Shown: one piece after another, positions 2,667 through 5,589 of the stretch
Numbering within the stretch: position 1 is the stretch's first letter
How the letters are laid out: each line of letters begins with the position of its first letter
NCBI GenBank assembly: GCA_025938055.1
Contig: JAICQC010000238.1
Location: forward strand, 1 to 7,447
DNA: 7,447 bases
Reading direction: 5' to 3'
DNA from: Anaerolineales bacterium
Lineage (GTDB): Bacteria; Chloroflexota; Anaerolineae; Anaerolineales; Villigracilaceae
Program-made: the position numbers and the translations under genes
Notes under the pieces: model-generated
What the model saw: the letters and a program-made list of their open reading frames with translations, nothing else
Databases searched by the model: none
What the model was told of the DNA's origin: nothing

Positions 2667-2689
2667 TTTTCAAGTTCATTGGAGGAGTG

Positions 2690-3343
2690 ATGATCGTTAT
2701 CTCAGACATGATGGGCACATTGACGACAGGCTCACCCGTCCTGGGCCTGGTGGATTGGGTACGACATAACCAGAGCAAGATGCAGGCGCGGCTCTACATG
2801 GCGTCGATCCTGCCTTCCTATTTGATTGCCAAGCGCGGCTGGATCGACTGGCAAAGCTGGGCACAGGGATTAATGGTCAACAGCCTGAAGATGGTCAAAA
2901 ACGCGACGCCTGAAAAAATGAAAGTCGTTGCCGAGTGGGCAGTGGAACATGATCTCTGGAAGAAGCGCCGTGAGGATGTAATCGCGCGCCTGCAAGAACA
3001 TGTAGCGCAGGGCGCGCAGGTCTATATCGCCAGCAGCGTCGTCGAGCCTATCATCGAACCGTTTGCCAGGCGCGTCAGCGCGCAGACCATAGGCACACCG
3101 GTCGAATACAAAGATGGGCACGTGCGTGTGGCGGGTAACCTGGTCGCGCAGGAGCGTAAGATCGAAACGGTATTGAGTCGCCTGGGAGTGGAGCAAGTTG
3201 ACTTCGCATACGGAGATACTGAACAGGATATTCCCTTGCTGGAACATGCCAATCATCCGGTCGCGGTGTATCCCGATGAAAAGTTGAAAGCCGTTGCGCT
3301 CGCACGCGGTTGGGAGATTCACGGTTCACGAGAAAACGATTAA
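2690..3343 (+). CDS. HAD-superfamily hydrolase, subfamily IB-like (phosphoserine-phosphatase type)
   Basis: HAD enzymes use an Asp nucleophile to hydrolyse phosphate esters. The 217 residues show motif I ISDMMGTLT with nucleophile Asp6, a helical cap at about 15-95, motif II VYIASS at 111-116, motif III Lys157 in QERK, and motif IV AYGDTEQDIPLL with Asp176 and Asp180. Motif I lacks the second Asp of the usual DxD: Met8 takes its place, so the general acid of a normal phosphatase is missing. The enzyme may therefore use another acid, act on a different substrate, or have changed role. A GTG at 2687 is also in frame, but it is 1 nt from GGAGG; the ATG at 2690, 4 nt away, is the better start. 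It is the first gene of a four-gene operon and its stop overlaps the next start by one base (TAATG). Substrate is unknown. Confidence 0.88.
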   Translation: MIVISDMMGTLTTGSPVLGLVDWVRHNQSKMQARLYMASILPSYLIAKRGWIDWQSWAQGLMVNSLKMVKNATPEKMKVVAEWAVEHDLWKKRREDVIARLQEHVAQGAQVYIASSVVEPIIEPFARRVSAQTIGTPVEYKDGHVRVAGNLVAQERKIETVLSRLGVEQVDFAYGDTEQDIPLLEHANHPVAVYPDEKLKAVALARGWEIHGSREND

Positions 3344-4008
3344 TGGATGACACAAAACTCTGGGAGATCCGCGCCTTTGTCTATCGCTACCTTGCGGAAA
3401 CGACCCATCCACCGAGCGTGGAGAAGACCGCTTCGCATTTCAGTCTGACTCACGAGCAGGCTGTTTCCGTTTACGAAGCGCTTCATCAACGCCACGCGCT
3501 TTTTCTTAAGCCAGGCACATCCGAAGTCCTGATGGCGAATCCGTTTTCAGGCGTGGAAACTCCCTTTCGGGTGTACGCCAACGGCAAAACCTATTTCGCC
3601 AACTGCGCCTGGGATTCGCTCGGTATCCCTGCCGCGCTGCGCGCGGATGCAGAGGTCGAAGCCTCCTGCGCGCAGAGTGGAGAGCCCATCCAAATCAGCG
3701 TGACCGATCAACAGGTCCGGGGTTCGGATGCGCTTGTGCACTTCCTCATCCCATTCCGGGACTGGTATGACGACCTCGTCTTCACATGAACCAATATGCT
3801 TTTCTTCCGGTCGGAAGAAGCCTTGCACGAATGGCTCACCCCGCGCAATGCAGAGTGCGGCGCTGTCTTGTCCATCTCACAACTGTGGCAACTCTCGCAG
3901 CGCTGGTATCAGAACCGTATGTCGCTGGAGTATCACGGCAGGACACCGGAGCAGGTGCAGGAGATTTTTAAAGAGCTGGGGTTGACTTCCAGTTTCTGGA
4001 GCGCTTAG
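3343..4008 (+). CDS. Selenoprotein: MerB-fold (alkylmercury lyase-like) protein with Sec149 encoded by in-frame TGA
   Basis: MerB breaks carbon-mercury bonds by protonolysis with two Cys and one Asp. Read through TGA 3787-3789, this gene gives 221 residues (MerB has 212). Residues 1-70 form a winged-helix-like N-terminal domain. FANCAWD places Cys88 and Asp91 where MerB has Cys96 and Asp99 (YAWCALD). EASCAQSGEP at 106-115 matches MerB Cys117, with the same 21-residue spacing from the first Cys. The TGA, residue 149, sits five residues before LFF as MerB Cys159 sits before HFF, so selenocysteine replaces the catalytic Cys. A SECIS hairpin follows at the correct distance. The frame is open on both sides, so there is no frameshift and no other damage. 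ATG 3343 overlaps the HAD stop, which implies coupled translation. No other mer genes are near, so activity on organomercury is unproven. The alternative, a nonsense mutation, is less likely. Confidence 0.85.
3792..3825 (+). promoter_or_regulatory. Bacterial SECIS element (selenocysteine insertion hairpin)
   Basis: Three nt after the TGA begins a stem with CAA/UUG at the base (3792-3794 with 3823-3825), an internal loop, GC/GC (3798-3799 with 3820-3821), a UU bulge (3800-3801), and a perfect 7-bp upper stem UUCUUCC/GGAAGAA (3802-3808 with 3813-3819). It is closed by a GGUC loop (3809-3812). The loop starts after 19 nt, against 18 in E. coli fdhF, whose apical loop is also GGUC. G in the first two loop positions, and a bulged U in the stem, are what SelB recognises in the known example. 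The hairpin lies inside the reading frame, as bacterial SECIS elements do. Confidence 0.82.
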
Positions 4009-4419: not shown

Positions 4420-5589
4420 ATGAATAGGAACATCCTCATCAGCGGGGCAGGTATCTCCGGTTTGACCCTGGCATACTGGCTGAAAAAGCGGGGCTTTTCT
4501 CCGGTGCTCATTGAAAAGCGCCCTGATCTACACGACCGGGGCTATATGATCGACTTCTATGGCTCGGGATATGATGTCGCCGAGAAAATGGGGTTGCTCG
4601 AGCAGCTTCAGGAAAAATCAGCGCAATACCCTGTATCAAAACTTGCATTTGTCGATCGCAATGGAAAACAGCGTGCAACTCTGGATGTAGAGAAGTTCAG
4701 GCAGCTTTTGGATCATAGGTATTTTCCTCTGATGCGCGGAGACCTGGAAACAGTCATTTACGAATCTGTAAAAGACAGTGTACCGATCTCTTTCAACACA
4801 AGCATTGCCAATCTGAACATGCGACCCGATGCCGTGGAGGTTGAATTTACAGACGGCAAACGCGGGATGTATGACCTGGTCGTCGGCGCAGGCGGCATTC
4901 ATTCCAATGTGCGCCGGTTGTTATGGGGCGATGAAAGCCAGTTCAGGAAATTTCTTGGTTTTTACGTGGCGTGCAGTGTGATCGACAATTTCCTGGGCGT
5001 GCAGGATTCCTTCTATGGACATTTTGAGCCAAATGCGCAAACAACCGTGTATTCGATTGGAAATAACAAGCTGGCTGTCTTCTTTGCTTTTAAGTCTGAG
5101 GAATTGAACGCCCGGGGTCGCCAGGGACAGATGGATGTGCTCACGAAGAGATTCGGACAACAGGGCTGGGTCGTCCCTCAACTCGTGGAAGGGACGAAGC
5201 ACGCGGACGATTTTTTCTTCGACGCGGTCGCGCAGATTCAACTCGACGAATGGTATAAGGAGCGGGTCGCGCTGGTGGGAGATGCCTGCCAGTGTCTGAC
5301 TCTCCTTGCCGGTCAGGGCGCCTCGATGGGAATGGCTGGCGCCTATCTGCTTGCAGACGAATTATTTAAGGCGGATGGTGATTACAGGGTTGCTTTCCCG
5401 TCATACCAACAGAAACTACAGCCGGAGATCCTTCGCAGGCAAAAAGATGCACGAGGGCTGGCAGGCTCGTTCGTCCCCGAAACGCATGCCGCCATCGCCA
5501 TGACCTATTTCCTTTTGAACGCGGCTTTTTTGCCCGGCTTCAGATCCCTGTTCAAAAGACAAATCGGGGCGAGGAGCATTATCAAGTGA
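4420..5589 (+). CDS. FAD-dependent monooxygenase (flavoprotein aromatic hydroxylase family)
   Basis: The family (PF01494 type, with UbiH and TetX relatives) uses NAD(P)H and O2 to hydroxylate substrates. From ATG 4420 there are 389 residues: the Rossmann motif ISGAGISGLTLAYWL at 7-21 with Glu32 binding the FAD ribose, Arg106 in LMRGDLE, the central motif VVGAGGIHSNVR at 154-165, and the second FAD motif ALVGDACQCLTLLAGQGASM at 284-303 with Asp288. Two departures stand out. The GADG of the central motif is GAGG, and the usual GDAAH is GDACQ. A hydrophobic helix near 361-375 could touch the membrane. ATG 4414 and TTG 4396 are also in frame; 4420 is chosen because the FAD motif then begins at the usual distance, but no clear ribosome binding site separates the choices, and translation may be coupled to the VOC gene. 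It is the last gene of the operon, before a terminator. Confidence 0.9.
   Translation: MNRNILISGAGISGLTLAYWLKKRGFSPVLIEKRPDLHDRGYMIDFYGSGYDVAEKMGLLEQLQEKSAQYPVSKLAFVDRNGKQRATLDVEKFRQLLDHRYFPLMRGDLETVIYESVKDSVPISFNTSIANLNMRPDAVEVEFTDGKRGMYDLVVGAGGIHSNVRRLLWGDESQFRKFLGFYVACSVIDNFLGVQDSFYGHFEPNAQTTVYSIGNNKLAVFFAFKSEELNARGRQGQMDVLTKRFGQQGWVVPQLVEGTKHADDFFFDAVAQIQLDEWYKERVALVGDACQCLTLLAGQGASMGMAGAYLLADELFKADGDYRVAFPSYQQKLQPEILRRQKDARGLAGSFVPETHAAIAMTYFLLNAAFLPGFRSLFKRQIGARSIIK

What the first reader, a model, noticed from the sequence alone, without database searches (positions are those of the whole stretch)
3343..4008. A MerB-like selenoprotein: selenocysteine in place of the catalytic cysteine of organomercurial lyase
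Seen: one in-frame TGA at 3787-3789 splits an otherwise intact 221-codon gene, and both sides align with MerB without a frameshift. Known: MerB acts through Cys96, Asp99 and Cys159. Here they correspond to Cys88, Asp91 and the TGA (residue 149), and the spacing from the first catalytic Cys to the third conserved Cys is kept at 21. Replacement of a catalytic Cys by Sec is the usual pattern of true selenoproteins. Selenium binds mercury more tightly than sulfur and is a better nucleophile, so the change could alter metal-carbon chemistry. An automatic annotation would break this gene into two hypothetical ORFs. I do not know of an established MerB-family selenoprotein but cannot search for one.
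Basis: partly seen in the sequence, partly recalled or inferred. Interest (0 to 1): 0.95.

Follow-up and report, generated by a model that had tools for sequence, protein, structure and literature searches.

The report
Widespread selenocysteine-containing MerB-type organomercurial lyase
The in-frame TGA codon of this gene recurs at the same active-site position, followed by the same predicted RNA hairpin, in relatives from at least six bacterial phyla, so it is predicted to be read as selenocysteine in place of a metal-gripping cysteine of an organomercurial-lyase (MerB) relative, an enzyme that would likely split carbon-metal bonds and whose listed public gene records stop short at this codon.

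Summary
Confirmed and extended. The TGA at 3787-3789 lies in frame inside a MerB-family gene (PF03243, 112 bits) and aligns with catalytic Cys159; Cys88, Asp91 and Cys109 align with Cys96, Asp99 and Cys117. Of 79 relatives covering the site, 49 have TGA, 29 a Cys codon, one a deletion. A hairpin fitting the bacterial SECIS rules (loop RGUC, 19 nt after the UGA) is formed in 62 of 63 distinct Sec-type genes and in 2 of 42 Cys-type genes. Selection past the TGA is about as strong as before it. SelB passes its cut-off in 57 of 62 genomes with the TGA form; the window's own genome is not held. A Sec-bearing MerB-like family (SaoL) is already listed in reviews; this protein scores far below its cut-off, and 120 of 120 listed homologs stop just before the TGA. 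Unexpected: 11 MerB-family genes in 9 genomes carry TGA at both catalytic cysteines, one beside selA-selD-selB. The fold is MerB; Sec insertion, substrate and activity are untested, and MerA passes its cut-off in only 5 of 46 genomes with the TGA form.

The parts
3343..4008 (+). Sec-type MerB-family gene, 221 codons with TGA at codon 149; ATG overlaps the stop of the upstream HAD gene by one base
3604..3606 (+). Cys88 codon (= MerB Cys96)
   Evidence: alignment; Cys 115 or Sec 8 of 123 aligned rows, duplicates included
3613..3615 (+). Asp91 codon (= MerB Asp99)
   Evidence: Asp 117 / Glu 6 of 123 rows
3667..3669 (+). Cys109 codon (= MerB Cys117)
   Evidence: Cys in 101 of 123 rows
3787..3789 (+). 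TGA, predicted selenocysteine codon 149 (= MerB Cys159)
3801..3820 (+). predicted SECIS hairpin: stem UUUCUUCC / GGAAGAAG, apical loop GGUC at 3809-3812, loop starts 19 nt after the UGA
2687..3343 (+). overlapping upstream gene, HAD-IB type hydrolase; possibly translationally coupled, functional link not shown
   Evidence: a 66% homolog lies 2.8 kb upstream of the Sec-MerB of the nearest relative L001

Best explanation
The gene encodes a MerB-family protein whose codon 149, a TGA in the place of the catalytic Cys159 codon, is predicted to be decoded as selenocysteine by means of the predicted hairpin that follows it, and the protein would likely use Cys88, Asp91 and Sec149 to bind an organometal such as methylmercury and split its carbon-metal bond. 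Shown by calls: the in-frame TGA; its conservation in relatives as TGA or Cys codons; a hairpin-forming stretch with fixed spacing and loop in 62 of 63 TGA genes against 2 of 42 Cys genes; purifying selection beyond the TGA; the MerB fold of the predicted model; SelB and tRNA-Sec in most genomes that carry the TGA form. Inferred: SelB is recruited by the hairpin and inserts Sec in this organism; the selenolate of Sec149 and the thiolate of Cys88 coordinate the metal while Asp91 delivers the proton that releases the hydrocarbon, on the model of MerB (PMC4525700, abstract and passages seen); a cellular thiol removes the metal, since MerA usually fails its cut-off in these genomes. Untested: Sec incorporation, substrate and activity.
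For: TGA in frame, both halves MerB. Alignment of active-site residues. Site 149: 49 TGA, 29 Cys codons (23 TGC, 6 TGT), 1 deletion (L076) among the 79 of 80 loci covering it. Wider alignment: residue 149 U 73, C 49, gap 1; residue 88 C 115, U 8, of 123 rows including duplicates. In-frame stops in MerB matches of four phylum surveys: 40 of 85 rows carry TGA only, 1 TAG, 1 TAA, 43 none (counted by hand; 6 of the 40 come from the survey-centre genomes G001, G023, G026, G030, chosen because they hold the gene). Hairpin: four closing pairs plus loop RGUC in 62 of 63 Sec genes, 0 of 29 Cys genes of the first scan and 2 of 42 Cys rows of the wider set (L086, L092); codon conservation peaks there (TTC 62/63, CGG 45/46, TCG 60/63 against 262 of 912 Ser codons in the same genes; median column 0.55); closing pair C-G 60, A-U 1, U-A 1; 92.9% of cells paired against 43.5-64.1% when slid. 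Omega after the hairpin 0.03-0.24, upstream 0.04-0.22, in the 10 of 12 pairs not saturated. selB over cut-off in 29/32, 13/14 further and 15/16 genomes with the TGA form, 57 of 62 in all; tRNA-Sec at 55 bits or more in 26/32 and 14/15. Nearest relative L001 (68% identity) has both. Fold: the 11 Foldseek hits under 0.001 are all MerB. Double-TGA homologs with TGA at both catalytic sites, one beside selA-selD-selB.
Against: No genome is held for the window, so selA/B/C/D could not be looked for there. Plain folding of the stretch is unimpressive (z -0.81; mean z over 48 nt -0.53 in TGA genes against -0.21 in Cys genes); single-sequence synonymous shuffles reach 0.05 at only 6 of 13 and 3 of 10 sites, window 0.013. 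In the pair count, sliding by +3 gives as many pairs changed on both sides (3) and a higher covariation score (0.142 against 0.120), and the number of pair types does not exceed shuffles (106 of 500), so covariation alone is modest. Two Cys genes have the hairpin, as relic or by chance. Within Chloroflexota genomes that have any MerB match, selB is common without the TGA form too (20 of 26; elsewhere 6 of 8), and the 18 Cys genomes are mostly archaea, so the genome association is partly taxonomic. No mer operon in the window; MerA over cut-off in 5 of 46 genomes. In Anaerolineales the gene sits by mevalonate-pathway genes (19 loci with HMG-CoA reductase), which does not point to mercury. Scores are below all NCBIfam MerB cut-offs (61.6 of 193 bits).
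Confidence: 0.72

Rival explanations
1. A true selenoprotein of MerB fold, but not an organomercurial lyase: it binds or sequesters soft metals, or acts on another organometal or a non-metal substrate.
For: MerA over cut-off in only 5 of 46 genomes with the TGA form; no other mer gene recognised in the window; in Anaerolineales 19 loci place it near HMG-CoA reductase and 14 near a HMG-CoA-synthase-like gene; below NCBIfam MerB cut-offs.
Against: The residues of MerB catalysis are kept: Cys/Sec88 and Asp/Glu91 in 123 of 123 aligned rows, Cys/Sec149 in 122 with one row not reaching the site; storage alone would not demand the acidic residue. MerB without MerA is known from the mer census (PMC8261052, passages seen).
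Confidence: 0.25
2. The TGA is an ordinary stop: a truncated 148-residue protein, a decaying gene or a sequencing error.
For: Public gene calls end there (120 of 120 listed homologs).
Against: TGA at the same codon in 49 loci from several phyla, other stops in only 2 of 85 match rows, purifying selection beyond it, conserved hairpin, MerB profile continuing through it.
Confidence: 0.02
3. TGA is read as another amino acid (a changed genetic code or a suppressor tRNA).
For: The frame alone cannot tell the residue.
Against: TGA ends a neighbouring gene in this window (5587-5589); the position alternates with Cys codons; hairpin and SelB/tRNA-Sec accompany the TGA form.
Confidence: 0.01

Closest known systems
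MerB, organomercurial (alkylmercury) lyase (PF03243; R831b MerB, PDB 3F0O; MerB2, PDB 5C17)
   Different: TGA instead of the Cys159 codon; below the NCBIfam MerB cut-offs; no mer operon around it; the published census screened for Cys at 96, 117 and 159 (PMC8261052, passages seen), so this form falls outside it.
SaoL, MerB-like organometallic lyase selenoprotein (NCBIfam NF040728; SAO system, Haft and Gwadz 2023, paper not held, known here from PMC13188914 and PMC9312934)
   Same: MerB-family selenoprotein with one Sec ('CU' motif in the review's table); for L115 the Sec aligns with the last position of the SaoL model, so the Sec may sit at the same place.
   Different: 51.4 bits against a cut-off of 140; no SAO partner gene among 9 window proteins scanned; 'TU' instead of 'CU'; double-TGA forms exist here. 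That SaoL is a Clostridia family is recalled, not from a call.
Double selenoproteins linked to metals or methyl transfer (MbdU, MduS and others in the table of PMC13188914, passages seen)
   Same: Two Sec residues in one protein, as predicted for the double-TGA MerB homologs.
   Different: Other families; here the two TGA codons replace the two cysteines that hold mercury in MerB.

Membership tests
MerB family, Pfam PF03243 | Profile match over the curated cut-off | tested here: met
   112 bits against 27
MerB family, Pfam PF03243 | MerB fold | tested here: met
Canonical MerB (as screened in PMC8261052: Cys96, Asp99, Cys117, Cys159) | Cys96, Asp99, Cys117 | tested here: met
   C88, D91, C109
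Canonical MerB (as screened in PMC8261052: Cys96, Asp99, Cys117, Cys159) | Cys159 | tested here: not met
   TGA at codon 149: filed as a Sec variant of the family, not as canonical MerB
Canonical MerB | NCBIfam MerB cut-off (NF009710, NF033555) | tested here: not met
   61.6 of 193 and 55.2 of 200 bits
Canonical MerB | C-Hg cleaving activity | not testable with these tools
   needs enzyme assay
SaoL (NF040728) | NCBIfam cut-off 140 bits | tested here: not met
   51.4 bits; 23.6-58.6 bits for the 14 of 15 relatives scanned that matched it
SaoL (NF040728) | SAO partner genes nearby | tested here: not met
   none among 9 window proteins scanned against NCBIfam; says nothing beyond the 7.4 kb window
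Bacterial selenoprotein | In-frame UGA replacing Cys of homologs | tested here: met
Bacterial selenoprotein | bSECIS hairpin 16-37 nt downstream, loop 3-9 nt with G in first two positions (rules from PMC13188914) | tested here: met
   19 nt, loop GGUC, 8 pairs in the window; 62 of 63 Sec genes, and a different hairpin in the 63rd
Bacterial selenoprotein | selA, selB, selC, selD in the same genome | not testable with these tools
   no genome held for the window; selB over cut-off in 57 of 62 genomes of relatives with the TGA form
Bacterial selenoprotein | Selenium in the protein | not testable with these tools
   needs 75Se labelling or mass spectrometry

The most novel reading that the evidence does not exclude
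A large hidden clade of selenocysteine organometal lyases: MerB relatives in mostly uncultured bacteria of at least six phyla use Sec for the second metal ligand, and some use Sec for both, giving a dual-selenolate active site (11 genes in 9 genomes found here, including a probably exported form and one next to selA-selD-selB) that would break carbon-metal bonds and hold the metal more tightly than any thiol enzyme.
Probability: 0.45. Interest if true: 0.9.

Novelty: new variant of a known kind. Interest (0 to 1): 0.76.

Why it matters
Methylmercury demethylation is surveyed through merB; a Sec-coded form is cut at the UGA by gene callers and lacks the Cys159 codon that the published census screened for, so a broad set of bacteria (Acidobacteria, Verrucomicrobia and Planctomycetes show no MerB in that census table, PMC8261052) may have been overlooked. 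The repeated exchange of Cys and Sec codons at the two mercury ligands of one enzyme family gives a direct test of what selenium adds to carbon-metal bond cleavage, and of how a selenolate enzyme lets go of Hg(II) without MerA.

Tried and rejected
Whole-genome search of the window's organism: none held. Rfam scan of the window: two weak hits, neither a SECIS. Plain folding energy and 48-nt synonymous shuffles: weak; the position-specific hairpin count replaced them. Literature: searched open-licence PMC papers; no listing or passage that I saw describes this family, but Haft and Gwadz 2023 and Haft and Tolstoy 2025 are not held, so absence from print is not shown. In the GOS 2008 paper the terms MerB and alkylmercury do not occur and 'mercur' points to mercuric transport proteins; the ISME 2016 and deep-Sep papers gave no hit for the mercury terms (main text, term search only). 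The position of the Sec in SaoL could not be read directly (inference from model ends: inconclusive; L071 would overshoot the model by three positions). A cultured Sec carrier: the best plasmid hit of 15 records, Paraburkholderia sp. PGU19, proved to have Cys (the others were not inspected); phages none. Conserved neighbours as a clue to function: recurrent ones only in Anaerolineales-type loci. The pseudogene, other-code and frameshift readings were rejected as told under rivals. L076 'TGT' was set aside because a deletion removes the homologous codon; it keeps the hairpin. Rows dropped by me before the tree: L052, L073, L076, L077, L078, L079, L080 (partial or aberrant), exact duplicates such as L094 of L030, and L098, L125-L130 (genes already present through other loci); one of the 105 tree rows, a Cys row, could not be mapped back to DNA, later all 42 were. 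L163, found in a survey, has TGA at the site but not the RGUC motif; its hairpin was not scored.

Full report
Observation. The frame 3343-4008 (+) reads through one TGA at 3787-3789, codon 149, to a TAG. The read-through protein matches Pfam MerB with 112 bits against a cut-off of 27; residues 1-148 alone give 66 bits on profile positions 1-78 and the rest alone 28 bits on 87-126. In alignments to solved MerB chains C88, D91, C109 and codon 149 fall on Cys96, Asp99, Cys117 and Cys159. TGA serves as a stop elsewhere in the window (5587-5589), so it is not a reassigned codon throughout.

Conservation of the TGA. A protein search found 2326 homologs; the 120 listed (best) are 144-155 residues long and all end in the Thr that precedes the TGA; NCBI names three of them organomercurial lyase, others are called hypothetical or alkylmercury lyase. 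A scan of GTDB species genomes gave 84 relatives, 80 kept. Of the 79 loci whose match covers the site, 49 have TGA, 29 a Cys codon (23 TGC, 6 TGT), and one (L076) reads TGT only because of a frame-shifting deletion; L078 ends before the site. With loci from a Chloroflexota survey added, 123 aligned rows (duplicates included) have at residue 149 Sec 73, Cys 49, gap 1; at residue 88 Cys 115, Sec 8; at 91 Asp 117, Glu 6. Record titles put the TGA form in Chloroflexota, Acidobacteriota, Verrucomicrobia, Planctomycetota, Gemmatimonadetes and 'Deltaproteobacteria' (Myxococcota in the tree's labels); these are metagenome bins, so single assignments may be wrong. PF03243 surveys of 301 Chloroflexota, 297 genomes of the L023 phylum, 240 of the L026 phylum and 195 of the L038 phylum found 85 match rows: 31 with one TGA, 9 with two, 1 TAG, 1 TAA (below cut-off), 43 without stop; 6 of the 40 TGA rows are from the centre genomes. 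If these were decaying genes the other two stops should be common too. The TGA of the survey rows was then located at the Cys159 site by alignment, pattern or translation.

Tree. A maximum-likelihood tree of 105 rows (59 Cys-Sec, 42 Cys-Cys, 4 Sec-Sec) needs 4 changes of the Sec149 state (3 forced by well-supported branches) and 2 for the double-Sec label; the window pairs with L001 (100/99) inside a Chloroflexota Sec clade. Several long branches meet, L114 and L116 among them, so deep placements and the number of origins are unsure.

SECIS. In the window the TGA is followed by UUUCUUCC-GGUC-GGAAGAAG with the loop 19 nt downstream, within the published bacterial rules (16-37 nt, loop 3-9 nt, G in the first two; PMC13188914, passage seen). 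Four closing pairs and a loop GGUC (47) or AGUC (15) are found in 62 of 63 distinct Sec-type genes; the exception, L116, has its own GCCUCU-CGUGA-AGAGGC at 24 nt. The same hairpin is in 0 of 29 Cys genes of the first scan and in 2 of 42 Cys rows of the wider set, L086 and L092, perhaps relics, perhaps chance. The most conserved codons of the whole Sec alignment are those of the hairpin, and the closing pair changes from C-G to A-U in L071 and to U-A in L114. Sliding the 3' side by 1-3 columns lowers pairing from 92.9% to 43.5-64.1%, but at +3 the covariation score is higher (0.142 against 0.120) with as many doubly changed pairs (3), and pair types do not exceed shuffles. Also on the weak side: whole-stretch folding and single-sequence synonymous shuffles (6 of 13 and 3 of 10 sites at 0.05 or better), because the encoded FFRSEE/FFWSEE motif is itself prone to pair. 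Between ten pairs, omega after the hairpin is 0.03-0.24 and upstream 0.04-0.22; window-L001 and L005-L012 are saturated.

Machinery. SelB over the cut-off: 29 of 32 genomes with the TGA form and 0 of 18 with the Cys form (the latter mostly archaea); in Chloroflexota with any MerB match 14 of 15 against 20 of 26 (G001 is in both calls); in the other phyla 15 of 16 against 6 of 8 (two of those 8, G379 and G365, turned out to carry a double-TGA gene). Together 57 of 62 distinct TGA genomes; three of the five others (G021, G294, G923) show SelB pieces. tRNA-Sec at 55 bits or more: 26 of 32 and 0 of 18, 14 of 15; scores of 47-50 bits look like cross-hits of long-armed tRNAs (my judgement). So the machinery is there, but in these phyla it does not discriminate. 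The window's own genome could not be searched.

Double-TGA homologs. Four genes of the Chloroflexota survey (three in G185, one in G061) and five of the L023-phylum (Acidobacteriota) survey (G469, G023, G607, G452, G551) carry TGA at both the Cys96 and the Cys159 positions. In the six of the G061/Acidobacteriota type the first TGA is followed by CCCUU-CGUGC-AAGGG at 26 nt (UCCUU/AAGGA in L151, a compensatory change; a GUC loop at 27 nt in L153) and the second by UUCUUCU-GGUC-AGAAGAA at 19 nt. In the three G185 genes the first hairpin (GCUGGC-stem, 17 nt) is weaker and not better than shuffles (0.10, 0.35, 0.70). Two more genes (G379, G365), probably exported by their signal-peptide-like start, have UGCUGUU-GGUC-AACAGC[A/G] after the first and CUCUUCU-GGUC-AGAAGAG after the second TGA; the one scored reaches 25.9 bits on PF03243, just under the cut-off of 27. 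In G551 the double-TGA gene lies upstream, on the same strand, of selA, a selD-AhpD fusion and selB, with roughly half a kilobase before selA. A model of the L153 type (pLDDT 92.1) matches MerB crystal chains at TM 0.73-0.79, rmsd 2.8-3.7.

Mechanism. From the MerB literature (PMC4525700, abstract and passages seen) Cys96 and Cys159 hold the metal and Asp99 moves the proton. Placing Sec at 159 would give a more acidic, more mercury-loving ligand (general chemistry, recalled); Asp91 would still protonate the carbon. Release of Hg(II) needs an acceptor; MerA passes its cut-off in 5 of 46 genomes with the TGA form, so thiols or another selenoprotein are more likely acceptors. All of this is inference. 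The gene's surroundings differ between lineages: a HAD hydrolase overlaps it here, mevalonate genes flank it in Anaerolineales. A substrate other than organomercury therefore stays open.

Known or new. Reviews list one MerB-like selenoprotein, SaoL. The window protein scores 51.4 of 140 bits on that model and has no SAO neighbour in the window. The Sec of SaoL may lie at the same site but this is not settled. The mer census PMC8261052 screened for Cys at 159 and lists no MerB for Acidobacteria, Planctomycetes and Verrucomicrobia. I rate it a new variant of a known kind: a separate, widespread Sec-MerB family with double-Sec offshoots. The two papers most likely to mention it are not held here.

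Noticed in passing
   Followed up: partly
   Followed up: partly
L170:3515-4864 (+), genome G032 (the genome of L071): MerA/lipoamide-dehydrogenase-like flavoprotein with an in-frame TGA at the first redox cysteine (GGTUVNVGC), so a possible reductase selenoprotein in a genome that also has a Sec-type MerB.
   Followed up: partly
L002, L004, L009 and 16 further Anaerolineales-type loci: Sec-type MerB gene within 3.5 kb of HMG-CoA reductase upstream, in 14 loci also a HMG-CoA-synthase-like gene and in 10 a thiolase downstream, a mevalonate-pathway cluster.
   Followed up: partly
L116:3413-4075 (+), genome G115: A closer relative of classical MerB (129 bits) with TGA directly before a Cys (UC at 159/160) and a different hairpin: perhaps a separate gain of Sec.
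   Followed up: partly
L086 and L092, genomes G292 and G299: Two Cys-type MerB genes carry the RGUC hairpin behind the Cys codon, possible relics of a Sec past.
   Followed up: no
G003:C445:20540-20632 (L171): A second selB over the cut-off with a weak tRNA-Sec hit (39.5 bits) directly in front of it.
   Followed up: no
window 4426-5589 (+): FAD monooxygenase related to tetracycline destructases (240 of 550 bits) but better matched by a general FAD-binding family, also below its cut-off.
   Followed up: no
L169:4001-4606 (+), Paraburkholderia sp. PGU19 plasmid: Unannotated MerB-like gene with Cys at the 159 site and Cys in place of Asp99 (CMWC).
   Followed up: partly
L120:238-1282 (-), genome G299: Two MerB-like genes in tandem, the second interrupted by a TAG.
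   Followed up: no
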